The translations under genes were made by a program, and so were the position numbers. This document shows positions 1 to 52,094 of a stretch of DNA of 64,000 nt, in pieces. Below the pieces are notes generated by a model that was not told where the DNA came from, ran no database searches, and was given only the letters and a program-made list of their open reading frames with translations. Within the stretch, counting starts at the first letter, position 1. Every line of letters starts with the position of its first letter. The stretch lies in NCBI GenBank assembly GCA_018268675.1, contig JAFDWB010000094.1, positions 1 through 64,000 on the forward strand, written 5' to 3'. This DNA comes from Actinomycetota bacterium (GTDB lineage: Bacteria; Actinomycetota; Thermoleophilia; Solirubrobacterales; 70-9).

Positions 1-270
1 TGTCCCGGACGTCCGAGGAAGACGGGAGGAAGGGTGACGGACCTCCCGTTCCCCGGCCGACCCCGGTCAGCTGTTCTTTTTGCCGGACTGGTCGGCATAA
101 GGAACAGCTGGAGGGAGAGACGTCCTCGAGGCGACGGCGAATTCCCACTTCGGTGACCGACCCGTGGCCGTCCCGTGACGCCGCCGCGACCCTTTCTCCC
201 TCTCCCCGCACCCTCGGCCGTCTCGGCCGCGGCCACAGCCCGCCAGGGTCGTGGCCGAGACGGCCGCGTC
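1..270 (+). repeat. Multi-hairpin repeat element, copy 1 (cut by the window edge)
   Basis: The right-hand half of a ~490-bp repeat also present at 16619-17117 (inverted) and 51584-52076. Three of its hairpins are visible: one with arm ACGGGAGG, one with arms CAGCTGTTC/GAACAGCTG, and a terminal hairpin with arm GGCCGTCTCGGCC and loop motif CACAGCCCGCCAGG. It ends against the stop codon of the leftward VOC gene, so it may also act as that gene's terminator. No coding signal is convincing here. Confidence 0.8.
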
Positions 271-663
271 CTACCCAGGCGTCGCGCCCTCGTCGCTCGC
301 GCCCGCCTCGACCGGGGCGTAGCGGTGGTGCAGCATCAGGTCGTTGCCGTCGGGATCGGTGAAGAGGGCCATGTGGCAGACGCCGGTGTCGAAGGTCTCG
401 CCGAGGAAGGTGACGCCTTTGGCTTCGAGGTCGGCGCGAGCGGCGGCGACGTCGTCGACGTGGAGGGCGGGGTGGGCGTTCTTCTGGGGCGCGAACTCGA
501 GGCCGAGACGGGCCGGCTCCCAGATCCCGAAGCAGGTGTCGCCGACCCAGAACTCGAACTGGCCGTGGGGGTCGGGGCGCAGCCCGAGGGTCTCCACGTA
601 GAAGCGGCGCGAGCGCTCCGCGTCGGTCGAGGGAACGCCGACAAAGTCCAGCTTGGTGATCAT
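271..663 (-). CDS. VOC (glyoxalase/bleomycin-resistance fold) family protein
   Basis: A 130-residue single-domain vicinal-oxygen-chelate protein. It begins MITKLDFVGVPSTDAERSR and shows the paired beta-alpha-beta layout: an N-terminal FYVETLGL helix and strand, and a C-terminal FTDPDGNDLMLHHRY strand. Family members bind a divalent metal and act as lyases, dioxygenases or resistance proteins; the substrate cannot be told. The ATG at 663 is preferred over longer in-frame starts because GGAG lies about 9 bases upstream and the family starts near this residue. The last residues (EAGASDEGATPG) are disordered. Confidence 0.85.
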   Translation of the reverse strand: MITKLDFVGVPSTDAERSRRFYVETLGLRPDPHGQFEFWVGDTCFGIWEPARLGLEFAPQKNAHPALHVDDVAAARADLEAKGVTFLGETFDTGVCHMALFTDPDGNDLMLHHRYAPVEAGASDEGATPG

Positions 664-2091: not shown

Positions 2092-3936
2092 ATGCGCCGG
2101 CGGTCCCAGACGCGGCGCCTTCGCACTTCACCGCGGTATGCGCGGGTAACCGCGAACGCGTTCGCGGCGCTTGTCGCAGTGGCGCTCCTGGCACCCGCGG
2201 CGGCGTCCGCGCACGCGCGCCTGGAAGGGACCACCCCGCCACAGGGCGCGGTGACGAGGCACGAGCCGGCCGCGGTGATCTTCGAGTTCGACGAGCCGGT
2301 GGAGGGGAGCCTCGGCGCGGTCCGCGTCTACGACTCGGCGGGCGAACGGGTCGACCAGGGCACCACCTTCCACCCCCACGGCGAAGGCCCGAAGCTCGCC
2401 GTCCACCTGCGGCCCGACCTCCCCGACGGCAGCTACACCGCCACCTACCGGGTCGTCTCCGCCGATGGCCACGTCGTCGCCGGCGGCTACGTCTTCTCGG
2501 TCGGCGCGCCCGGCAAGGCGCCCACGGAGACGGTCGGCGAACTCATCAGCGGTGGCGGCAGCGGCACCGTGACCGAGATCGCCTACGGCCTGGCCCGCGT
2601 CCTCGAGTACGTCGCCATCGCGCTCGCCGTCGGTGGCGTCGCCTTCCTCCTGATCTGCCGGCTCCCGGCCCTGGCCGCCGCGACCGGTGTGGGGGAGGAC
2701 TCTCGCCACCTCGCCGCCCGAGCCTTCTCCTCCCGCCTGCGCCTCCTCCTCTGGGCGGCAGCCGCAACCGGCCTGATCGCCGCCGCCGCCCAAATCGTCC
2801 TTGAGGGCGCCGCGGCCGCCGGCGTCACCGTCTTCAGCCTCACGAAGCCAACCCTCGAAGCGACCGTTGAGACCCGCTTCGGCACCGTCTGGGCCTTCGC
2901 TTTCATCGCCTGGCTCGCAATCGGAGCTCTCGCACCGCCCGTGACGAGCGGATCAGGGGACCCCCGAACGAACCTCCCCGCTGTTCGTGAGAGAGGGGGT
3001 CCCCTGATCCGCCCCCTCGCAACGCTTCCGATCACCACGCTCCTGATCGCTGCTCCTCTGGTCTACCTCTGCCTCTGCCCGGCCCTGGCCGGCCACGCCT
3101 CGACCCAGTCCCCCGTCGCCCTGAACTTCCCCGTCAACGCCATCCACGTGGCCGCGATGGCGATCTGGCTTGGTGGGTTGGCGGCGATGTTGCTCGTCCT
3201 GCCGGCGGCTACTCGCTCGGTGGCAGCCGCCGACCGCGCCCGCCTGCTCGCCGGCCCCCTCGCCCGCTTCTCGACCCTCGCCCTCGCGATGGTGACCCTG
3301 ATCCTGGCCACCGGCCTGATCCAGGCCTACGTCTACGTCCGCCACCCCGGGGACCTATTCTCGACCGGCTACGGCCGCGCCGTGCTCGCGAAGTTCCTCC
3401 TGCTGCTCGGCGTGATCGGCGTCGCCGCATACAACCGCCGCGCCTCGGTGCCGCGGCTCGAGGCGATCGCCGAGCGCGGCGCGCCCCCCGGCCTACCCGG
3501 CGTCCTCCTGCGACGCGCCCTGCGCGCCGAGGTGGCGCTGCTGGCGGTCGTGATCGGCGTCACCGCGGCGCTCGCGAGCTCCGCGCCACCGATCTCCGCC
3601 GCGAGCGGTCCCTTCTCGACCTCCACGGCGATGGGGCCGACGACGCTCGGGCTGGACGTCGACCCGGCCCGGGTCGGCGCCAACCAGATCCACCTCTACT
3701 TCTTCGACGCGAAGACCGGTGCCCCGTACCGGCGGGGCAAGGAACTGACCCTCACGGCAACGCTCCCCGCGAAGGAGATCGGGCCGGTGCCGCTCACCGC
3801 CCAGCCCGCCGGGCCGGGCCACTACATCGTCGCCGACGCACAGCTGAACGCCCCCGGCGAGTGGGAGATCGCCCTCGTGCTGCGCGTCTCGGAATTCGAC
3901 CAGCTCGAAAAGACGGTGGAGGTGGGAGTCGGGTGA
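2092..3936 (+). CDS. CopC-CopD fusion, copper resistance/import protein
   Basis: A 614-residue fusion. After a signal sequence (ALVAVALLAPAAASAHARL) comes a CopC-like beta sandwich, residues ~40-150, with the mature N-terminal His and the SADGHVVAGGYVFSV segment that supply copper ligands in CopC. A CopD-type membrane domain follows with about eight helices (e.g. ALAVGGVAFLLICR, AMAIWLGGLAAMLLVLP) and then a C-terminal extracytoplasmic beta domain (~525-614). CopC and CopD work together in periplasmic copper binding and transfer across the membrane. Two repeat hairpins lie inside the frame: one in the signal-sequence coding region, and one adding about 20 residues to a loop between helices near residues 285-307. 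A YcnI gene follows. Confidence 0.9.
   Translation: MRRRSQTRRLRTSPRYARVTANAFAALVAVALLAPAAASAHARLEGTTPPQGAVTRHEPAAVIFEFDEPVEGSLGAVRVYDSAGERVDQGTTFHPHGEGPKLAVHLRPDLPDGSYTATYRVVSADGHVVAGGYVFSVGAPGKAPTETVGELISGGGSGTVTEIAYGLARVLEYVAIALAVGGVAFLLICRLPALAAATGVGEDSRHLAARAFSSRLRLLLWAAAATGLIAAAAQIVLEGAAAAGVTVFSLTKPTLEATVETRFGTVWAFAFIAWLAIGALAPPVTSGSGDPRTNLPAVRERGGPLIRPLATLPITTLLIAAPLVYLCLCPALAGHASTQSPVALNFPVNAIHVAAMAIWLGGLAAMLLVLPAATRSVAAADRARLLAGPLARFSTLALAMVTLILATGLIQAYVYVRHPGDLFSTGYGRAVLAKFLLLLGVIGVAAYNRRASVPRLEAIAERGAPPGLPGVLLRRALRAEVALLAVVIGVTAALASSAPPISAASGPFSTSTAMGPTTLGLDVDPARVGANQIHLYFFDAKTGAPYRRGKELTLTATLPAKEIGPVPLTAQPAGPGHYIVADAQLNAPGEWEIALVLRVSEFDQLEKTVEVGVG
2117..2159 (+). repeat. Leader hairpin repeat, copy 1 (pair with 40407-40449)
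   Basis: A 43-base hairpin within the signal-sequence codons of the CopC-CopD gene. It shares the outer arm TTCGC/GCGAA, the tip TATGCG and the downstream GCGAACGCG with the copy at 40407-40449, while the inner stem bases differ in a partly compensatory way. It encodes the segment YARVTANAFAAL. Confidence 0.6.
2948..3012 (+). repeat. In-frame palindrome with conserved 29-base loop, copy 1
   Basis: A perfect 18-bp stem (2948-2965 with 2995-3012) encloses a 29-base loop (2966-2994) carrying ACGAACCTCCCCGC then GTTCGTGAGAGA. The loop matches that of the palindrome at 34316-34384 at 27 of 29 bases, although the stems are unrelated. The insertion is in frame in the CopC-CopD gene. Confidence 0.85.
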
Positions 3937-16563: not shown

Positions 16564-16618
16564 CGCCCAAGCCTAGATGGCTGACTCCCTGAGCTTTGTG
16601 CGGGCCCACGTGCCGGCT

Positions 16619-17117
16619 GTCGCCCGAGGGGCAAGGGACGCGGCCGTCTCGGCCACGACCCTGGCGGGCTGTGGCCGTGGCCGAGACGGCCGGGTCTGGG
16701 GGGAGAGGAGGAAGGGTCGCGTGGGGGTCACGGGAGCGCCACGGCTCCGTCACCGAAGTGGGAATTCGCCGTCGCCTCGAGGACGCCCCTCCCTCCAGCT
16801 GTTCCTTATGCCGACCAGTCCGGCAAAAAGAACAGCTGACGGGGGTCGGCCGGGGAAGGGGAGGTCCGTCACCCTTCCTCCCGTCTTCCTCGGACGTCCG
16901 GGACACGCTGCAGCGATAAGGGTCGCTGGGGCGACACTTATCGCTGCAGCGGGTGTCGGGGCCCCGATCTCGGCCTTGAAAGGGCACGGAAGTGTGACGT
17001 CCCGACGTCTTCGTCACGGACCCGTGCCCTCTTCCCCACGCACCCCTCACGTCCCGGGCGCCTCATGGGGGTCACAGCCTGCCAGGACCCCCATGAGGCG
17101 CCCGGGACGTGACTCGG
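16619..17117 (-). repeat. Multi-hairpin repeat element, copy 2 (inverted, complete)
   Basis: A complete copy in reverse orientation relative to 1-270 and 51584-52076. It contains the same ordered hairpins, including one with arms CGCTGCAGCGATAAG and a terminal hairpin with CGCCTCATGGG arms and loop CACAGCCTGCCAGG. It occupies most of the 645-base gap between the histidine kinase and the cupin gene; the remaining ~55-90 bases on either side show no feature. Confidence 0.85.
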
Positions 17118-17208
17118 ACGGCCGCACCGGCCCCGAACCCTCGCCCGTCCCTCCCCGGCCGTGGGATCAAGCATCCAGACGCCTGCCGCGGCCGGCCTCG
17201 GCCGTCGC

Positions 17209-20265: not shown

Positions 20266-20412
20266 CTCGGAGGGACGAGGGCCTTGCAGGCTGGCGCCCG
20301 GGAAGGGTCGAGGGCCGTCAGACGTCGCGATCGCGCTGAGTGAATTTGCCTCCCTATACGGTGGAAATCTCACTCACGCGTTCCCGGGCCCCCGGCCGTC
20401 CGGCCCCGAGCT
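20266..20412. terminator. Large nested palindrome between convergent cysO and glnQ
   Basis: Nested arms pair across the whole gap: GCCCGGGAA with TTCCCGGGC, inner TGAGTGA/ATTT with AAAT/TCACTCA, and partial GC-rich outer arms ending in CTCGG and CCGAG. It lies exactly between two convergent stop codons, so it likely ends both transcripts. Confidence 0.55.
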
Positions 20413-40358: not shown

Positions 40359-41362
40359 GGGGCGCGCACCGACAACCGCCCGCCCGGCGCGCCCGCCCCG
40401 CCCGGTGCGTTCGCACTTATCGACACTATGCGTGGATAACTGCGAACGCGCTCGCGGCGCTGGCGGTGATCGGCGGCGGCGCGCTCACCTCGGCGGCGCT
40501 CGGCGCCCCGGGTGGGGCGGCGCCGGGCGGCGCGGGGCACACCGGGCACCCCCTGGAAGTCGAACCGCGCCTCCAGATCCTCGGCTCCGACGGCTACCGC
40601 CTGCTGATCTCGGCGCGGGCGGCGACGGTGACGATCGGGGTCTCGCCGAAGGGCAACACGCCGCGCGCCGGCTCCTCGACCACCTACGTCGCCCGCGGCG
40701 TCTCCGGCCCGCACGGCATCCACGCCGATTTCCACCAGTTCGGCCGCGTCGACCTGAAGTTCCACCCGACCGCGGCGGCCGCGCGCGGGCTGCCGCCCGA
40801 CTGCTTCGGCGGCACCACCGGGGCGGCGACGATCCCCGGCTACTTCACCGGGACCGTCGATTTCCACGGCCAGGGCGGCTACACGGGCGCGACGGCGCAC
40901 CGGGCCCGCGGCGAGGTCGTCCTGCCGCCCACCGAACAGTGCCCCCTGGTGGCAGGCGGCGCCAACCCGCTGGTCGAAGACCCGAGCGTCGAGCTGCCGC
41001 CCGCGAAGACGCGGATGAACCTCAGCGCCTTCGACAAAGCCGGTACCGGCGGCCTCTTCTTCTTCGCCCGGCGGGCGGGCAAGACCGGCTTCTACGCGGA
41101 ACGCTTCGGGACGGTCGGGCGGATCGGCCTGCTGAGCTTCGACTACGCGCTCGGCCCCCGCTCGAGCTTCGTCTCCGACCCCAAGGTCAGCTTCGGCAGC
41201 GTCCACCCGCCGAAGCCCTTCCTCGGCTCGGCGACCTTGAGCCGCGGCCCCGGCGGCACCCGCACCTGGACCGGCACTCTTGTCGCCACCTTCCCCGGCG
41301 GCGAAACCGTCCCCCTCACCGGCGACCAGTTCCACACCTCCCTTTCCAGAAGCTTTCCCTAG
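40355..41362 (+). CDS. Exported protein of unknown function, downstream of the protease
   Basis: A 335-residue protein with an Arg-rich N-terminus, then hydrophobic NALAALAVIGGGALTSAALGA as signal or anchor. The mature part is beta-rich (FGRVDLKFHPTA, YFTGTVDFHGQGGYT, GTLVATFPGG) and has two widely spaced cysteines. It overlaps the protease stop (ATGA), so it may be a partner, inhibitor or substrate. The first codons carry the leader hairpin also found at 2117-2159. Confidence 0.7.
   Translation: MRGAHRQPPARRARPARCVRTYRHYAWITANALAALAVIGGGALTSAALGAPGGAAPGGAGHTGHPLEVEPRLQILGSDGYRLLISARAATVTIGVSPKGNTPRAGSSTTYVARGVSGPHGIHADFHQFGRVDLKFHPTAAAARGLPPDCFGGTTGAATIPGYFTGTVDFHGQGGYTGATAHRARGEVVLPPTEQCPLVAGGANPLVEDPSVELPPAKTRMNLSAFDKAGTGGLFFFARRAGKTGFYAERFGTVGRIGLLSFDYALGPRSSFVSDPKVSFGSVHPPKPFLGSATLSRGPGGTRTWTGTLVATFPGGETVPLTGDQFHTSLSRSFP
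40407..40449 (+). repeat. Leader hairpin repeat, copy 2
   Basis: GCGTTCGCA pairs with TGCGAACGC, then TTATC with GATAA and CAC with GTG around the tip TATGC. It is the same length and position relative to the signal sequence as the copy at 2117-2159, and codes for YAWITANALAAL. Confidence 0.6.
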
Positions 41363-41748: not shown

Positions 41749-41776
41749 TATTGTCTCGGAACTAAGGTAGGAAGCG

Positions 41777-42505
41777 ATGGCGGATCGAAGCGCAATTGAG
41801 TGGACCGAGGCGACCTGGAATCCGGTTACCGGATGCGATCAGGTCTCTCCCGGTTGCGCCCACTGCTACGCGAAGACCTTCGCGGAGAGGTGGCGGGGAG
41901 TGCCCGGTCATCCATACGAGCAGGGCTTCGACCTACGGATGTGGCCGCAGCGCTTAGGACAGCCGCTGAAATGGAAGCGGCCTAGAACGATCTTCGTGAA
42001 CTCGATGAGCGATCTGTTCCATGAGCGCATCCCGGCTTCATTTATCGCCGAAGTCTTCGACGTGATGGTGGAAGCGGATCAACACGTATTTCAAGTACTG
42101 ACCAAGCGCCCCCATCGAGTTCTCGAACTCGCGTCCGAGCTTCCGTGGCCGTCGAATGTATGGATGGGCGTCTCGATCGAGAATCGGCGCTTCGTCCATC
42201 GGGCCGACTTGCTGCGGGAGGTTCCGGCGGCCGTTCGCTTCATTTCCGCCGAGCCACTTCTTGGCCCGCTGGAAGGGCTCGATCTGGAAGCGATTGATTG
42301 GCTGATTGCGGGTGGAGAGTCGGGGCCCGGGCATCGGCGTATCGACGAGGGATGGGTCATTGAGCTCCGCGACCGCTGTCTCGACGATGAAGTAGCTTTT
42401 TTCTTCAAGCAGTGGGGCGGAGCGAGGCCGAAGTCGGGAGGCCGTGAATTGCAGGGGCAGACGTGGGACCAGGTGCCGAGAGTTCGCGAGACGATCGCGG
42501 TCTAA
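41777..42505 (+). CDS. DUF5131 (phage Gp37/Gp68) three-Cys-motif protein
   Basis: A 242-residue protein opening SAIEWTEATWNPVTGCDQVS, with the three-cysteine motif C-x6-C-x2-C (GCDQVSPGCAHCYA), the hallmark of a radical-SAM-like phage Gp37/Gp68 family. Other conserved blocks are IFVNSMSDLFHE, QVLTKRPHR, NVWMGVSIEN, FISAEPLLGPL and AFFFKQWGG. The family usually sits beside a TcmP partner gene, as here. The reaction is not established. It is the first gene behind the LexA box and overlaps tcmP. Confidence 0.92.
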   Translation: MADRSAIEWTEATWNPVTGCDQVSPGCAHCYAKTFAERWRGVPGHPYEQGFDLRMWPQRLGQPLKWKRPRTIFVNSMSDLFHERIPASFIAEVFDVMVEADQHVFQVLTKRPHRVLELASELPWPSNVWMGVSIENRRFVHRADLLREVPAAVRFISAEPLLGPLEGLDLEAIDWLIAGGESGPGHRRIDEGWVIELRDRCLDDEVAFFFKQWGGARPKSGGRELQGQTWDQVPRVRETIAV

Positions 42506-43476
42506 TTGAAAAGCAAGGCCGGTCCTGGGGCTTTTGGACCCAGGCGAAGCTGGAGATGCTTGCGAGCTACCTGGGGGCGTTCTCCACGGCCTCGGGCAGC
42601 GTCAGCGAGCGCGTGTATCTCGATGCCTTCGCCGGGGAAGGGAGCGGTCGAGATCGCGGTTCCGGCGAGGAGTTCGATGGCTCGGCCAGGATTGCTTTGG
42701 ATGCCGGCGAGGGCGCTGGTTTCACCCGCTTCCGCTATTTCGAGATGGGACCGAAGGCAGCGGAGCTTGAGACTCGTCTGCGAACGGACTATCCGGGCAA
42801 GGACATCAAGGTCTACGAGGGCGATTGCAACCAGATGATTCCGGTGGCTCTTGCGGAGTTGTCAGACCTGAAATGGGCGCCGACGTTTGCCTTCCTCGAT
42901 CCCGACGGGATGGAGTTGGAGTGGCGCACCCTTGAGGCTTTGGCGGCGCACAAGCGCGGCTATCGATCGTCGGCGTCCGCTAAACCCGAGTACAAGGTCG
43001 AGATGTGGATGCTGTTTCCCTCGTCGGGACTGATTCGCACCTTGGCGCTCGATGAGGGAAAAGTCCGCAATGAGGACTTTGAAAGGGCGACGCGACTCTT
43101 TGGCACCGACGAATGGAGGCCAATTTACGAGCGGCGACTTGCCAACCAGTTCTCGGGAGAGCAGGCGCGTGAGGAGTACGTGAACTTGATGCGGTGGCGT
43201 TTGGAGCGGGCACTGCGGTACGAAGCAGCGCACGCTTTCGAGGTGCGGAATAGCCGCGGCCCGATCTACCACATGATCTTTGCGACGGATAACAAAGCCG
43301 GGACCAAGATCATGAGTTCGATCTACAACAAAGCGGCGGCACGCCTCCCAGAGATGCAGGAGGAAGCGAGAAATCGCGCCGCTGGCCAGAGCACCTTTGA
43401 TTTTGGTGACTCCGTCCTTGCAGCAAACGAGGGATATCACTACGAGCCTCCGTGGGAGCCGCCAGCCGACGAGTAG
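42463..43476 (+). CDS. tcmP: Three-Cys-motif partner protein TcmP
   Basis: A 337-residue TcmP-family protein (SWGFWTQAKLEMLASYLGAF, VYLDAFAGEG, FAFLDPDGMELEWRTLEAL), with a Rossmann-like core resembling methyltransferases or nucleases (DAFAGEGSG). TcmP genes are defined by their pairing with three-Cys-motif proteins; the joint function is unknown. The GTG at 42463 lies inside the upstream gene with AGGGG before it, so the pair is coupled. DNA-damage induction through the LexA box is predicted. Confidence 0.9.
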   Translation: MGPGAESSRDDRGLIEKQGRSWGFWTQAKLEMLASYLGAFSTASGSVSERVYLDAFAGEGSGRDRGSGEEFDGSARIALDAGEGAGFTRFRYFEMGPKAAELETRLRTDYPGKDIKVYEGDCNQMIPVALAELSDLKWAPTFAFLDPDGMELEWRTLEALAAHKRGYRSSASAKPEYKVEMWMLFPSSGLIRTLALDEGKVRNEDFERATRLFGTDEWRPIYERRLANQFSGEQAREEYVNLMRWRLERALRYEAAHAFEVRNSRGPIYHMIFATDNKAGTKIMSSIYNKAAARLPEMQEEARNRAAGQSTFDFGDSVLAANEGYHYEPPWEPPADE

Positions 43477-43545
43477 ATCCGTCGCGCGATGTCGGATCGT
43501 CGTCCCTGGTACGCAATTCAATCGCTACACGCCTCGGAGTAAGGC

Positions 43546-44217
43546 ATGATGGAGATGCAGATCGCGCTCAGCGCCGTCGCCACGACCACTGGCGCTTGGG
43601 CGTCTGGCGTTAGCCCGCTGGTGACGGCAATCGTGTCGGTATGCGTTGGCGCTGTGCTCGGATTTGGGGGCAGTTATCTACTCGGACGACAGCAACGCGG
43701 TTGGCAGCAAGAGCAATCTCGGTTCGAGCGGGAGCTTGCATTGGTCAAAGGCCTCGATGAGGCTCTTGTGGACGCCGAGCGACGAATTCTCGAACGGGAA
43801 TCTCCACCGGACGGCGCCAGCCGCTGGGAATTTGCATTGGAAGCGTGGGAGCAAGCATGGGTCCGCTTATCTCCGTTCTTGGCAAACCATGAGATTCACG
43901 ATCGCTACGAAGCAGTCGGGCGGATCTTGGCCGAGCTGGTGACTTATGACGGTGCGGCGCGGCCGGCATTCCAGCGGAATGCCGCGATGCGTGCGACTCT
44001 GAACGCCCGACAGGCGATCGCCTACTTTGGTCGCGAAGAGTTGCTTCCTCCCCGATGTTTTCCAGGACCCGACGAGTTGACCCGATTACTTGGCGAAGGC
44101 GATCCCGATCCTTTTGACCGCAATGCGCCGTTTGCGAAATGGCTAAAAGACCATCCTGCGGCGCCGTGGCGAATCGAGAAAAGCCTGGCGACAAATGAAG
44201 ACGTGCCGGGGTCATAG
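43546..44217 (+). CDS. Hypothetical protein with one N-terminal membrane helix
   Basis: A 223-residue protein: a helix (LVTAIVSVCVGAVLGFGGSYLLG) near residues 25-47, then a charged cytoplasmic helix-rich domain (QQEQSRFERELALVKGLDEAL). The topology resembles small phage- or plasmid-borne membrane-tethered proteins of unknown function. GGAG precedes the ATG. Nothing catalytic is seen. It lies in the lower-GC left part of the element. Confidence 0.65.
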   Translation: MMEMQIALSAVATTTGAWASGVSPLVTAIVSVCVGAVLGFGGSYLLGRQQRGWQQEQSRFERELALVKGLDEALVDAERRILERESPPDGASRWEFALEAWEQAWVRLSPFLANHEIHDRYEAVGRILAELVTYDGAARPAFQRNAAMRATLNARQAIAYFGREELLPPRCFPGPDELTRLLGEGDPDPFDRNAPFAKWLKDHPAAPWRIEKSLATNEDVPGS

Positions 44218-44226
44218 GCTTCCCTG

Positions 44227-44427
44227 ATGCCGACCGACCCGAAGGATGCCCTTCGTGCCTCCGTCCGGGCCGCTCAGAAACGCTACGAGGCGGAGGCCCA
44301 CGCCGCGCGTCAGGTGCGGCGTGATGCCTTCACCAAGGCGCAGGAGGAAGGGTTGAGTCTTCGCGACATTGGGGAGGCGGTCGGGCTTCATCACAGTCGC
44401 GTCGGCCAGATCATTGAAGGCAAGTAG
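44227..44427 (+). CDS. Small helix-turn-helix protein
   Basis: A 66-residue protein ending in LSLRDIGEAVGLHHSRVGQIIEGK, which fits a helix-turn-helix of the sigma-region-4/homeodomain-like type. A basic N-terminal helix precedes it. It probably binds DNA as a regulator or recombination directionality factor of the element (inference); the latter are often this size. Confidence 0.6.
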   Translation: MPTDPKDALRASVRAAQKRYEAEAHAARQVRRDAFTKAQEEGLSLRDIGEAVGLHHSRVGQIIEGK

Positions 44428-44487
44428 CCGATGATGTCTAGATTTACTCGACAAAGCCTGCTAGTCTAACGACGCAGACAAAAAAGC

Positions 44488-44516
44488 GCCCCCGCGCTGC
44501 GCAAACAGCCGGGGGC
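44488..44516 (+). promoter_or_regulatory. Hairpin before the XRE cassette
   Basis: GCCCCCG/CGGGGGC stem, preceded by an A-run and followed within 10 bases by AGGAGG, the ribosome site of the next gene. It could be an operator for the downstream regulators or a translational control stem. Confidence 0.4.
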
Positions 44517-44539
44517 ATGGCACAGGAGGTTGGACTCCC

Positions 44540-45265
44540 ATGCACCCACAAGATAAGTCCGGGGGCGAGATCGGCACGCCCTCCTCGCCCGAGTTCGTCC
44601 CGCTGATCCTCCCCGACGCCCAGAGGGAGACCCTCCGGGAGATGTGCCTCGACTCCCTCCACGGCATCCTCGACGACCTCGCGACGCCCGACCGGCTCCG
44701 CGATCCCTCCTTCACGTCACGCGAAGGGGAGGTCTTCCGCCGGCTCTTGGAAGCATTGGACTCCGAGGAGATCCAGCTACCCGACCGGGAGATGCGCGAG
44801 CGCATCGGCCGCCTCTCCGAGAGCTACGACGAGATGGAGGAGGCCGCGGAGGTGATCGCCACCCACGAGGCCCACCACGCCCTCCTGCGGGTCCTCGACG
44901 GGGACGAGGTCACGGAGGACGCCGCCGCCGGGCAGGAGGAGTCCGCAGACGAGGAGGACCCCGCCGACGAGGACCCCGACGACGGCTCCCTCCGGCAGGG
45001 TCCCGGCTGGGACACCGATGACGCCTACGACAGCAGCCGGCGGGAGGTCCTCGACCTGCTCCTGGCCGAGGCGCCAGATTGGCTGACCTCCGCCGACCTG
45101 GAGGTGGCGCTCGCGGGCCATCCGGCGACCTGGGGGGAGAAGGACACGCTCGAAATCGCGACCCGCTCCCTGGTCCGCGAAGGTCTGGCCCATCGCCAGG
45201 GGGATCTGTTCGCCCCGACCCGGGCGGCACGGCAGATGGCCGCGCTCGGCTTCTCGGTCGGCTGA
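44540..45265 (+). CDS. Hypothetical acidic protein heading the XRE cassette
   Basis: A 241-residue protein with an N-terminal helical domain (LPDAQRETLREMCLDSLHGI), an acidic linker (DEEDPADEDPDDG) and a C-terminal winged-helix-like domain (EVLDLLLAEAPDWLTSADLE, ATRSLVREGLAHRQGDLF). Its stop overlaps the first XRE gene by one base. It may be a co-regulator or an effector controlled by the three regulators. Function unknown. Confidence 0.65.
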   Translation: MHPQDKSGGEIGTPSSPEFVPLILPDAQRETLREMCLDSLHGILDDLATPDRLRDPSFTSREGEVFRRLLEALDSEEIQLPDREMRERIGRLSESYDEMEEAAEVIATHEAHHALLRVLDGDEVTEDAAAGQEESADEEDPADEDPDDGSLRQGPGWDTDDAYDSSRREVLDLLLAEAPDWLTSADLEVALAGHPATWGEKDTLEIATRSLVREGLAHRQGDLFAPTRAARQMAALGFSVG

Positions 45266-45546
45266 TGGACGAGTTCGACGCCCGTGTCGCCCGCCAGCTC
45301 GGGCGACGCATCAGGAGGCGACGCCATTTCCTCGACCTCTCCCAGGAGGCCCTCGCCGAACGCTCGGGCATCCACCGCACCCAGTTCAGCCTCTACGAGA
45401 ACGGCGAGCGGATGCCGATGACCTCGACCCTGATCAAGCTGGCGGCGGGCCTCGGCGTCTCGGTCGACCAGCTGCTGGTCGGGATCGAGTGGGAGGTCGT
45501 CGGTCCGCCGCTCCGCGACCCCGGCGAGGGCGATCCTCATGGTTAG
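45265..45546 (+). CDS. XRE-family regulator 1
   Basis: A 93-residue protein with a Cro/CI-type HTH (LGRRIRRRRHFLDLSQEALA, RSGIHRTQFSLYENGERMP). It is the first of three overlapping paralogues; all share the HRT(Q/E) recognition helix and a C-terminal AGIxW/GIxW element (VGIEWEVV). Probably a dimeric DNA-binding regulator of the element. Confidence 0.88.
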   Translation: MDEFDARVARQLGRRIRRRRHFLDLSQEALAERSGIHRTQFSLYENGERMPMTSTLIKLAAGLGVSVDQLLVGIEWEVVGPPLRDPGEGDPHG

Positions 45547-45835
45547 CCCCGTCGCCGCGCGCTTCGCCGCCAACCTGCGGGTCCTGCGCGACCGGGCCGG
45601 CCTCACCCAAGAAGAGCTGGCCTTCCGCGCCGACGTCCACCGCACCCAGGTCAGCCTGATGGAGGGCGGGGAGAGACTGCCGCGCTTCGAAACACTGGTC
45701 AGGCTGATCGGGGCGCTCGGGGTCGACCACGGCGCCCTCTTCGCCGGGATCGCCTGGCAGCCGCCCGACCTCGTCCGCGGCGGGCTCCTCGTCACCCCCG
45801 TCGAGGCAGACGACGATGCCCCAGAAGAGGCGTGA
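45539..45835 (+). CDS. XRE-family regulator 2
   Basis: A 98-residue paralogue: FAANLRVLRDRAGLTQEELA, RADVHRTQVSLMEGGERLP, then FAGIAWQPPD. It overlaps regulator 1 by 8 bases and regulator 3 by 20 bases. The recognition helix differs from regulator 1 at several positions, so the operators may differ. Confidence 0.88.
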   Translation: MVSPVAARFAANLRVLRDRAGLTQEELAFRADVHRTQVSLMEGGERLPRFETLVRLIGALGVDHGALFAGIAWQPPDLVRGGLLVTPVEADDDAPEEA

Positions 45836-46142
45836 CCCCGAGGTCGCCGGGCGCTTCGGCGAGAACCTGCGCCGCGTCCGCAGGCGGGAGGATCTGAGCC
45901 AGGAGAGGCTGGCGGTGCGCGCCTCGCTGCACCGCACCGAGATCGGCAGGCTCGAGGCGGGCGAGCGCGTCCCCCGCGTCGACACGCTGGTCAGGCTGGC
46001 CGACTCGATGGCGGTCCCGGCGGGGGAGCTGCTCGACGGGATCCACTGGGTGCCGGCGCCCGAGGCGGAGGGGACGTTCAGCTTCGGATCGATCTCAATC
46101 TCACCGAGTCCCAGGACAGCAATACAAAAGGCGGCCGACTGA
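45816..46142 (+). CDS. XRE-family regulator 3
   Basis: A 108-residue paralogue: FGENLRRVRRREDLSQERLA, RASLHRTEIGRLEAGERVP, DGIHWVPAPE, with a Ser/Ile-rich tail. It ends the four-gene overlapping cassette. Its recognition-helix residues again differ from the other two. Confidence 0.88.
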   Translation: MPQKRRDPEVAGRFGENLRRVRRREDLSQERLAVRASLHRTEIGRLEAGERVPRVDTLVRLADSMAVPAGELLDGIHWVPAPEAEGTFSFGSISISPSPRTAIQKAAD

Positions 46143-46647
46143 GCCAACGCTCGTTCCTCGCATAAGCGTCCAAAAAGGGGGGCCAGTTTCGTCTTTCGGC
46201 GTCTTGTTAAGAAATGGCCGAAAGACAGACCCTTGTTCGACTTATGGGGTAGATGCCCATGTCGAACCGTCAACCCTGGACGCGCGATTGTCCCTTTGCT
46301 CTGCCTTGCCGATCGGTCCGACCCCGATCGGCAAGGTCGGGGTGTGTGGGCTCCGCAAGGCGCCGCCGTTTGTGGCGTCCTAGGCGCGCCCGACTCTCTT
46401 ACCACCCGGTTGCACACGCACTCACCGTAGGTCGATCTTCTTGTTGTGCGAGTCGCCGCACCTCGTCTCGCGCCGTTCGCACGCGGCCCCCTCGCTATCG
46501 CCTCCGCGCTGGCTCCACAGCGCTTCTCCGACTCGACGGCGCCGATCGCACTCCGCGCGATCACGATCGCCTCCGCGCTGGCGAGGCAACGCCTTTCCGC
46601 TGTCGCGTTCCCATCGGCGCTCTCTGCTGCGAGGCAGGGAGGTGGGC
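46143..46647. other. Noncoding multi-hairpin region, candidate origin (oriV/oriT) of the element
   Basis: A 505-base gap before the replication-relaxation gene. It has three consecutive hairpins: GTCTTTCGGC/GCCGAAAGAC (46191-46226), TTCGAC/GTCGAA with inner ATGGG/CCCAT (46236-46266) and a perfect 13-bp stem CCTTGCCGATCGG (46304-46336). Further on, ATCGCCTCCGCGCTGGC occurs twice (about 46498 and 46568). Long reading frames here lack coding character. Confidence 0.5.
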
Positions 46648-48279
46648 GTGACCAAGACCAAGTCCCCCACCTGTCCCCCGAGGCGCCCGCGCCGCGACCG
46701 CGCGGTCCCGCCGCTGTCCGACCTCGACATGCGGATCCTCGCGCTCCTGTCCCGTCACCGGGTGCTGACCCAGAACCACCTCTCCCAGATCGTCACCGAA
46801 ACGCCGATCCGCACTCTGCGCTACCGCTGCGCGCGGCTCGCCCGCCACCGTCTCGTCGGGCGTAGTCGTCCCTACCGCGAACGCGGCTCGGCCCCGCACC
46901 ATTTCTGGCCGACCCGTCGAGGCGAGGCGATCCTGACTGGCGGCCCGCCGCCGCGTGGAGGCGAGCGCCGCGAGCCCAACCCGCTCTTCCTCGCGCATGC
47001 TGCTGCGCTCAGCGACCTCTACGTCGCGCTGGCGACCGGACTGCCCGCCGGAATCGAACTTGTCCGCTTCGAGCGCGAGGGCGAGGCTCGCGAGTCGTTC
47101 GCGGGTCCGGCCCGCAAGGCGCGTGCGGTCGCCCCGGATGCCTACATCGAGATCACCGATGCCGACGGCCACACGCTCAGTGCCCTGGTCGAGCTCGACA
47201 TGGGGACGATGTCCCACCGTCGCCTCAAGGCCAAGGCGGCGGGATATGCGGAGTACGCGAGGGCGGATGCATGGTGCGAGCGCCATCCGTTCTGTCCCGC
47301 ATTGCTTTTCGTCACCACCACCGAGAAACGCGCCCGCTCGTTCCTCGCCTCGATGCTCAAGGAGTTGGGGCGCAAGACCCTTCTCCTCACTTGCGCCTGC
47401 GATCTCGCCCGCAGGCTGACGCGCATCTCGACCGAGCCCCGCTGGCGGTTGAGTGCCGACGAGGGGGCGGGCGTCGTCGACCTGCTCTCCGCCTTGCGCG
47501 AGGCGCGCCGCCCCCACGACGAAGAGGTGGCGAGCTGGGAAGCATGGCGCCGGGAGAAGGAGGCCAAGACGGAGCGCCTGCGCTCGGACCCAGAGGCGCT
47601 GCGGGACCATCTGCGCCGGTCGCCACGGCAGGATTGGGGCTTTGACCGCCTCGGGCGGTCGGTTGCGGAGGCTTTGCGGATCACGTTGGAGGGCAACGAT
47701 CCGCTCGCCGGCTCGGAGCGCGGTGCCTTCCGGGTGCTCGGCGCGCTGCTCGCCGACCCGGTCGAAATCAGTATCGGCGATCGTGAGCCGACTGCGGCAG
47801 AGCGCTCCGCGCTCGATGACCTCATCGACTATCACCGTGCCGACCAACTGCGCCAAGTCGATGACCTAACCGGACGCCTTGGTGCGGTGCCTGTGTTACG
47901 ACGGGCGCGGGACCAGCTGGAGGCTGGCGACCTCTTGGATGCTTCCGACGCATCCGCGCTTGCCCTCCGGGCTGAAGACGACCGGCGCTCGCGCGTTGAG
48001 CAAGAGCGGCTGTGCTCCGCTTACTTGGCCTGGAGAGAGGGAGAGGCGCGACGACTCGCGAAGGGGCAGGGCTTCGCCGCGCGACTTCGGCGGGGGCCGG
48101 ACGACTTCCTCGAGGAGGTCGACCGCCGCGCGCTGCGCATCTGCAGCGATTGCAAGGAGATCGCCTACCCCGACCCCGAGCGGGTCCGATATCGGCGCGG
48201 GCGCTCCGATGTCGCCTCCCGCTGTCACTTCTGCGGGCGCGGGGATCTCCTTGACTTCGAGCCTCCGATCGGGGGGTGA
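46648..48279 (+). CDS. Replication-relaxation family protein
   Basis: A 543-residue protein with the N-terminal winged-helix region typical of Replic_Relax proteins (LSDLDMRILALLSRHRVLTQ, IVTETPIRTLRYRCARL, HHFWPTRRGEA, then NPLFLAHAAALSDLYVAL), a central nuclease-like or binding domain and a C-terminal zinc ribbon with two CxxC pairs (CSDC, CHFC). The family is encoded on actinobacterial and firmicute plasmids and conjugative elements. The GTG at 46648 with GGGAGG upstream is preferred over the longer frame from 46441. Confidence 0.8.
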   Translation: MTKTKSPTCPPRRPRRDRAVPPLSDLDMRILALLSRHRVLTQNHLSQIVTETPIRTLRYRCARLARHRLVGRSRPYRERGSAPHHFWPTRRGEAILTGGPPPRGGERREPNPLFLAHAAALSDLYVALATGLPAGIELVRFEREGEARESFAGPARKARAVAPDAYIEITDADGHTLSALVELDMGTMSHRRLKAKAAGYAEYARADAWCERHPFCPALLFVTTTEKRARSFLASMLKELGRKTLLLTCACDLARRLTRISTEPRWRLSADEGAGVVDLLSALREARRPHDEEVASWEAWRREKEAKTERLRSDPEALRDHLRRSPRQDWGFDRLGRSVAEALRITLEGNDPLAGSERGAFRVLGALLADPVEISIGDREPTAAERSALDDLIDYHRADQLRQVDDLTGRLGAVPVLRRARDQLEAGDLLDASDASALALRAEDDRRSRVEQERLCSAYLAWREGEARRLAKGQGFAARLRRGPDDFLEEVDRRALRICSDCKEIAYPDPERVRYRRGRSDVASRCHFCGRGDLLDFEPPIGG

Positions 48280-51531: not shown

Positions 51532-51579
51532 CGTTGCGCCCGTCCGACGTTGCGCCCATCCGACGTTGCGCCCGTCCGA
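51532..51579. repeat. Three tandem 16-bp repeats
   Basis: CGTTGCGCCC(G/A)TCCGA is repeated three times without gaps (51532-51547, 51548-51563, 51564-51579), between the rdgB stop and the multi-hairpin element. Confidence 0.9.
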
Positions 51580-51583
51580 GGTG

Positions 51584-52076
51584 GTCCCGGGCGCCTCATG
51601 GGCGTCCTGGCAGGCTGTGACCCCCATGAGGCGCCCGGGACGTGAGAGGTGCGTGGGGAAGAGGGCACGGGATCGTGACGAAGACGTCGGGGACGTCACA
51701 CTTTCGTGCCCTTTGAGGGCCGAGATCGGGGCGCCGGAGCTCGCTGCAGCGATAGGTGTCGTCCCGGCGACACCTGTCGCTGCGGCGCGTATCGGACGCC
51801 TGAAGAAGACGGGAGGAAGGGTGACGGACCTCCCGTTCCCCGGCCGACCCCGGTCAGCTGTTCTTTTTGCCGGACTGGTCGGCACAAGGAACAGCTGGAG
51901 GGAGGGGCGTCCCCCGGGCGACGGCGAATTCCCGCTTCGGTGACGGAGCCGCGACGTTCCCGTGACTCCCCCGCGACCCTTGCTCCTCTCCCCGGACACC
52001 CGGCCGTCTCGGCCACGGCCACAGCCCGCCAGGGTCGTGGCCGAGACGGCCGCGTCCCTTGTGCCCTCGGGCGCCA
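51584..52076 (+). repeat. Multi-hairpin repeat element, copy 3 (complete)
   Basis: Ordered hairpins: a 19-bp perfect stem at 51584-51641, AGGGCACG/CGTGCCCT with inner GTGACG/CGTCAC at 51662-51712, a 20-bp stem at 51742-51787, ACGGGAGG/CCTCCCGT at 51809-51836, CAGCTGTTC/GAACAGCTG at 51855-51897, a GTGAC-rich stretch around 51940-51965, and a perfect 16-bp stem at 52002-52051. The first and last hairpins share loop sequence in opposite orientation. Confidence 0.88.
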
Positions 52077-52094
52077 GCTTCCTGAGGCCCGCCC

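What the first reader, a model, noticed from the sequence alone, without database searches (positions are those of the whole stretch)
51584..52076. A ~490-bp element of seven ordered hairpins, three copies in 64 kb
Copies at 1-270 (partial), 16619-17117 (inverted) and 51584-52076 keep the same order of stems. In the hairpin at 51742-51787 a G-C pair in copy 3 is an A-T pair in copy 2, a compensatory change, so structure is under selection or is regenerated. All copies are intergenic and two abut stop codons. It matches no element I know. It could be a structured RNA, a nonautonomous mobile element, or a chromosome-organising site.
Basis: seen in the sequence. Interest (0 to 1): 0.75.

Follow-up and report, generated by a model that had tools for sequence, protein, structure and literature searches.

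The report
Modular multi-hairpin repeats between bacterial genes
About 80 copies of a non-coding, multi-hairpin DNA element sit just after the ends of genes in this uncultured bacterium, and many more in five sister species, but in no other genome searched; it is most likely an undescribed, modular, non-autonomous mobile repeat whose mover is unknown.

Summary
The window (Solirubrobacterales MAG, Actinomycetota) holds two full copies and one partial copy of an element present as about 85 whole or partial copies in its 4.2-Mb genome. Five of eleven genus mates also carry many copies; the other six, the rest of the order (232 genomes searched) and 396 sampled Actinomycetota have none. Two terminal hairpins are fixed, in inverted orientation, with a shared 14-nt loop (CCNGGCNGGCTGTG left, its reverse complement right). 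Their stems covary strongly. The interior is a changing set of hairpins, gained and lost whole. No copy overlaps or contains a called gene; complete copies lie at gene 3' ends (37 convergent, 31 tandem, 2 divergent of 70). Most sites differ between species. Best reading: a modular, non-autonomous mobile intergenic repeat, like pneumococcal BOX or BIME/REPIN in logic but with no known mobiliser (RAYT-type Y1 transposase is absent from all 12 genus genomes). It probably also acts as a two-way terminator (inferred). A single-strand structured RNA is disfavoured because tolerated mispairs point to opposite strands at the two ends. No target duplication was found. New variant of a known kind.

The parts
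1..280 (+). partial copy (interior from hairpin 3 onward, plus right-end hairpin, RE model match 209-280); the contig starts inside it
16618..17123 (-). full copy, inverted: LE model match 17044-17123, RE model match 16627-16698
51570..52079 (+). full copy incl. LE model match 51570-51648 and RE model match 51995-52066
51533..51582 (+). left iterons: three tandem TTGCGCCC(G/A)TCCGA(C/G)G units between the rdgB stop and hairpin 1
   Evidence: sequence
51584..51641 (+). hairpin 1 = left-end (LE) hairpin, loop CCTGGCAGGCTGTG
51662..51712 (+). hairpin 2
51742..51787 (+). hairpin 3, central palindrome; sequence differs between copies and species; covarying; deleted exactly in two G000 copies
51809..51837 (+). 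hairpin 4 (weak)
51855..51898 (+). hairpin 5 (CAGCTGTTCTTT..AAGGAACAGCTG); related hairpins also lie outside the LE-RE interval in other copies
51940..51966 (+). hairpin 6 (weak)
52001..52052 (+). hairpin 7 = right-end (RE) hairpin, loop CACAGCCYGCCAGG, reverse complement of the LE loop
52053..52079 (+). right flank motif GCGTCCCTT..CTCGGGCGCCAGC, tandemly repeated in some other copies
20266..20410 (-). reduced relic: central hairpin and right flank motif without LE or RE; the orthologous intergenic region in G006 holds a full element

Best explanation
A modular, non-coding, non-autonomous mobile repeat that has proliferated in one clade of uncultured Solirubrobacterales. Each unit is bounded by two long hairpins carrying the same 14-nt loop motif in inverted orientation; these are the probable recognition ends for an unidentified enzyme supplied in trans (inferred). 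Units are inserted, or tolerated, just downstream of gene stop codons. There they are remodelled by exact loss of whole hairpins (shown) and by acquiring other palindromic repeats (shown). Because little room remains between stop codon and end hairpin in this genome, the element probably also ends transcription of the flanking genes (inferred).
For: About 85 whole or partial copies in G000 and high copy number in five sisters, zero in six other genus members. Only those 6 of 232 genomes in the order, and only the window's genome of 396 sampled from the phylum. At the rdgB 3' end: full element in G000, left part (contig end) in G006, right part in G011, a simple terminator-like hairpin in G008, nothing in G003 and G007 where the stop codons overlap. 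Only about 7 shared sites between G000 and ~65 sampled G006 elements, 2 of them in inverted orientation. LE and RE are inverted relatives: the RE model finds LE on the opposite strand at up to 62 bits. Strong covariation in both ends. No gene overlap and no gene inside; 37 convergent, 31 tandem, 2 divergent of 70. Exact hairpin loss in L012, L023 and L235; the interior TTCGCA module also occurs alone.
Against: No mobilising gene found: Y1 transposase absent from all 12 genus genomes, IS110 and reverse transcriptase each in only one of six bearers. No target-site duplication. No near-identical recent copies: best G006 pairs are ~93% identical over the aligned part. No autonomous version seen. 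Some apparently empty sites are reduced relics, so part of the variation is loss or remodelling in place. No same-species empty site was available.
Confidence: 0.58

Rival explanations
1. A host-maintained two-way transcription terminator or 3'-end structure: a clade-specific intergenic architecture kept because it ends and insulates convergent transcription, spread by gene conversion or duplication rather than by a transposase.
For: Gene 3'-end bias; often <60 nt from stop codon to LE in G000; a simple terminator-like hairpin occupies the orthologous spot in G008; covariation; in each end hairpin wobble pairs are tolerated on the strand that a transcript arriving from the far side would carry.
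Against: Absent from six genus members that manage without it; most sites not shared; 500-900 nt is far more than a terminator needs; in G006 the stop codons are 89-557 nt from LE.
Confidence: 0.2
2. A structured non-coding RNA gene family transcribed from one strand.
For: Very stable fold with covariation; nearly invariant loops in six species.
Against: Left hairpin mispairs A.C 21 vs G.T 10, right hairpin G.T 82 vs A.C 4, i.e. opposite strands; interior not conserved in sequence or length; sites mostly not conserved; no Rfam match.
Confidence: 0.08
3. A chromosome-organising or protein-binding DNA site (nucleoid, segregation or replication).
For: Many copies per genome, nearly invariant loop motif in inverted pairs.
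Against: Absent from close relatives and all other actinobacterial genomes searched; site turnover; location follows gene ends.
Confidence: 0.06
4. Not one element but a hot spot at gene 3' ends where several unrelated palindromic repeats accumulate side by side.
For: Other palindromes (TTCGCA, CATAAGGAAC, CTTGTC) occur beside it or alone; interiors are mosaic; many lone LE or RE.
Against: LE and RE are paired in fixed order and orientation in 35 G000 and 38 G006 copies, and their loops match.
Confidence: 0.08

Closest known systems
BOX elements of Streptococcus pneumoniae (PMC3049150)
   Same: Modular, fixed left and right modules around a variable middle, hairpin-forming, over-represented between convergent genes, regarded as parasitic and proposed to be mobilised in trans.
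   Different: Other phylum, GC-rich, longer; ends are inverted hairpins with a shared loop; interior hairpins are heterogeneous rather than a tandem boxB; no IS with matching ends found.
BIMEs / REPINs with RAYT transposases (PMC3116915, PMC2817692)
   Same: Inverted pair of palindromes as a unit, high copy number, mosaic combinations.
   Different: REPs are short; here the ends are ~50-58-bp hairpins with 12-14-nt loops, and no Y1/RAYT gene exists in the genus genomes.
CGTC-tagged REPs (PMC3733652)
   Same: Gene 3'-end location between convergent and tandem genes, inverted dimers, no dedicated transposase known.
   Different: CGTC REP stems are 8-9 bp with 4-5-nt loops and a terminal tag; stems here are ~18-22 bp and the two ends share no tag.
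MITEs (PMC10969869)
   Same: Small, non-coding, structured, multi-copy, inverted end motifs.
   Different: No target duplication detected, no parental transposon found, outer inverted repeat only in a subset.

Membership tests
BOX elements | fixed distinct end modules with variable middle modules | tested here: met
   LE and RE constant, interior variable in length and with optional modules
BOX elements | sequence homology to boxA/boxB/boxC | not tested
   no direct comparison with box sequences was run
BOX elements | IS element with matching terminal repeats in the same genome | tested here: inconclusive
   no gene between LE and RE within 4 kb in G000; no exhaustive IS search was possible
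REP/REPIN | RAYT (Y1) transposase in the genome | tested here: not met
   PF01797 absent in 12/12 genus genomes while 5 control genomes ring
REP/REPIN | short (20-40 bp) palindrome with GTAG or CGTC tag | tested here: not met
   end hairpins ~50-58 bp; no shared tag at the equivalent flank of LE and RE
REP/REPIN | two palindromes in inverted orientation form the unit | tested here: met
   loops are reverse complements; RE model hits LE on the opposite strand
MITE | target-site duplication | tested here: not met
   no excess of direct matches between flanks over shuffled pairings; element boundaries are fuzzy, so a weak test
MITE | terminal inverted repeats | tested here: inconclusive
   outer GGGAAGGGACGGG / CCCATCCCTTCC seen only in a subset; longest inverted match between flanks not above shuffles
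MITE | non-coding, multi-copy, interspersed | tested here: met
known structured RNA (Rfam 15) | match to a covariance model | tested here: not met
   no match at gathering threshold
structured RNA in general | G.U-tolerant pairs on one transcribed strand throughout | tested here: not met
   LE A.C 21 vs G.T 10 (loop artefact pair left out), RE G.T 82 vs A.C 4; cells are not independent events
group II intron / IS110-mobilised element | reverse transcriptase or IS110 transposase in the bearers | tested here: not met
   each found in one of six bearers only

The most novel reading that the evidence does not exclude
A new kind of mobile element moved by an undescribed enzyme that recognises two hairpins folded on opposite strands (loop CACAGCCYGCC outward on each strand), targeted to gene 3' ends where it takes over as a two-way terminator and keeps rebuilding its interior from swapped palindromes.
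Probability: 0.2. Interest if true: 0.75.

Novelty: new variant of a known kind. Interest (0 to 1): 0.5.

Why it matters
It is a high-copy modular repeat in an uncultured actinobacterial lineage, and it helps explain why these MAGs break into contigs at the same sequence. Its fixed inverted end hairpins with a nearly invariant loop give a sharp handle for finding an unknown mobilising or binding protein. The mix of bearing and non-bearing sister species makes mobility, insertion preference and effect on transcription directly testable. It would extend the BOX/BIME style of modular mobile repeat to a phylum and structure not described in the sources searched here.

Tried and rejected
Rfam: no match. 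Plasmid, phage and viral collections: no match; 17 viral contigs with a 17-mer of the loop have no such hairpin. RAYT, IS110 and reverse transcriptase as mobilisers: profiles do not fit. Autonomous copy with a gene between LE and RE: none in G000 within 4 kb. LE-RE kissing loop tested by covariation: loops are complementary but nearly invariant, with only marginal co-variation (p 0.03, genomes pooled), so not supported beyond a shared inverted motif. Target-site duplication: no signal. First genome counts of 116-150 matches were inflated by hairpins also matching on their other strand and capped at 150; corrected for G000 to 58 LE and 62 RE. Descent at shared sites: elements at two orthologous sites are not more alike than unrelated ones, so shared position may be recurrent insertion or heavy remodelling.

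Full report
WHAT WAS CHECKED. The three copies exist as described. The 493-bp copy at 51584-52076 folds far better than shuffled sequence on both strands (z -11.1 and -8.6).

HOW MANY AND WHERE. A DNA search found dozens of copies at 72-95% identity in the window's own genome. Record titles place the lineage in Solirubrobacterales (MAGs SZAS-9/-14/-15, RYN_247, 70-9). Two covariance models were built, R1 for the left-end hairpin LE (29 sequences) and R2 for the right-end hairpin RE (37 sequences). In G000 they give, after removing opposite-strand self-matches, 58 LE and 62 RE: 35 complete elements, 23 lone LE and 27 lone RE, about 85 in all, some of which are two halves of one element split over contig ends. 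Among the 12 genus genomes six are positive (G000, G003, G006, G007, G008, G011; 3.8-4.7 Mb) and six are zero (2.4-3.4 Mb); G006 alone has about 100 listed sense-strand LE matches. In 232 genomes of the order only those six are positive, and of 396 genomes sampled across the phylum only the window's own (this used stricter filters and the five sisters do not appear among its matches). No match in plasmids, phages or viral contigs.

ANATOMY. Left to right: one or more left iterons (CCGTCCGAGNTGC; three in the window copy, many in G006); the LE hairpin; a variable interior; the RE hairpin; one or more right motifs (GTCCCTT..CGGGCGCCAGC); and, in a subset, an outer GGGAAGGGACGGG / CCCATCCCTTCC pair. 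The LE loop CCNGGCNGGCTGTG is the reverse complement of the RE loop; in 77 complete elements most of the 14 positions are invariant or nearly so on both sides. R2 finds LE on the opposite strand at up to 62 bits, so the two ends are inverted versions of one hairpin type. Their loops are conserved, not clearly co-varying with each other. The LE-RE gap ranges from 164 to 705 nt in G000, and whole elements from 347 to 900 nt in G006. The central hairpin has quite different sequences between species, and sometimes within one, yet remains a hairpin.

STRUCTURE IS MAINTAINED. In 93 LE and 108 RE sequences many pairs occur in two or three Watson-Crick forms with few intermediates, e.g. LE TA 49/CG 39 and CG 47/GC 35, RE CG 84/GC 19 and AT 84/GC 19. 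Alignments fitted to a model lean towards its structure, but the independent MAFFT alignments show the same. Mispairs that do occur are A.C more than G.T in LE (21 vs 10, leaving out one loop artefact pair) and G.T far more than A.C in RE (82 vs 4; 22 vs 4 without the most frequent position). A.C on one strand is G.T on the other. The wobble-tolerant strand is therefore the one on which each loop reads CACAGCCYGCC: bottom at LE, top at RE. That argues against one RNA read from one strand. Cells are not independent events, so this is suggestive, not proof.

PLACE IN THE GENOME. None of 85 G000 elements and none of 65 sampled G006 elements overlaps a called gene (gene calls come from a codon-usage script of my own). 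Complete elements lie between convergent genes 37 times, tandem genes 31 times and divergent genes 2 times (G000 17/15/2, G006 20/16/0). The background of adjacent gene pairs is 18% convergent and 18% divergent, and 28% and 29% for gaps over 100 nt.

HISTORY. At the 3' end of rdgB (beside the window copy at 51584) G000 has the element, G006 the left part of one at a contig end, G011 a right part, G008 only a terminator-like hairpin, and in G003 and G007 the two stop codons overlap with nothing between. Against ~65 G006 elements, ten flanking-gene matches (about seven sites) are also element-flanking in G000, five sites in the same and two in inverted orientation. At two orthologous sites examined the elements were no more alike than random pairs. 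The window itself holds at 20266-20410 a reduced relic (central hairpin and right motif) where G006 has a full element, so loss and remodelling in place also contribute. Whole hairpins disappear exactly: the central one in L012 and L023, LE in L235. Other palindromes join in: the TTCGCA palindrome is inside several elements and alone at window 2092-2178 and 40359-40465.

MECHANISM. Shown: clade-limited high copy number, fixed inverted ends, selected or regenerated hairpins, 3'-end location, site turnover, modular gain and loss. Inferred: movement by an enzyme in trans that recognises the end hairpins, and default two-way termination because little room remains between stop codon and LE in G000. 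Not found: any mobiliser. Y1 transposase is absent from all 12 genus genomes with working controls; IS110 and reverse transcriptase occur in one bearer each. No target duplication, no gene-bearing copy, and no very recent pair (best ~93% identity over the aligned part in G006). Confidence in the mobile-repeat reading is therefore moderate.

COMPARISON. In logic it is closest to pneumococcal BOX elements (fixed ends, variable middle, excess between convergent genes; PMC3049150) and to REPIN/BIME units (inverted palindrome pairs; PMC3116915). CGTC-tagged REPs likewise lack a known transposase and lie next to gene 3' ends, but have 8-9-bp stems (PMC3733652). Membership in REP/REPIN fails on the transposase and on the short tagged palindrome. 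Membership in MITE is weak without a target duplication. Literature searches found no description of such repeats in this lineage (open-access papers only).

Noticed in passing
2092-2178 and 40359-40465: A separate ~55-bp palindromic repeat (..TTCGCACTT..CGC-TATGCG..TGCGAAC..) stands alone after stop codons and also occurs inside many of the elements.
   Followed up: partly
L012:1501-1560 (G000 C53:5693): The LE loop of this copy is flipped (GTCACAGCCTGCCAGGAC instead of GTCCTGGCAGGCTGTGAC) while the stem is unchanged.
   Followed up: partly
L250 vs L012; L113 vs G000 C85 and C42: Elements between the same pair of flanking genes lie in opposite orientation in two species; in the L113 case one flanking protein is 100% identical to G000's, which may hint at mis-binned contigs.
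   Followed up: partly
L187 and L303 (G006): Long arrays of the left iteron CCGTCCGAGNTGC, widely spaced, between stop codon and LE.
   Followed up: no
contig ends of G000 (C25, C59, C60, C63, C65, C67, C78, C84, C86, C93 and others): Many contigs of this MAG end inside copies of the element, so it limits assembly of this lineage.
   Followed up: partly
42038-48279: Stretch with weaker coding scores and long gaps (e.g. 43477-44539); near 41770 a frame resembles a phage Gp37/Gp68-type protein (from memory, not tested); possibly acquired DNA.
   Followed up: no
L184, L183, L046: Terminator-like hairpins GGGCCGAAA..TTTCGGCCC occur at gene ends in sister species and once as the central hairpin of an element.
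   Followed up: no
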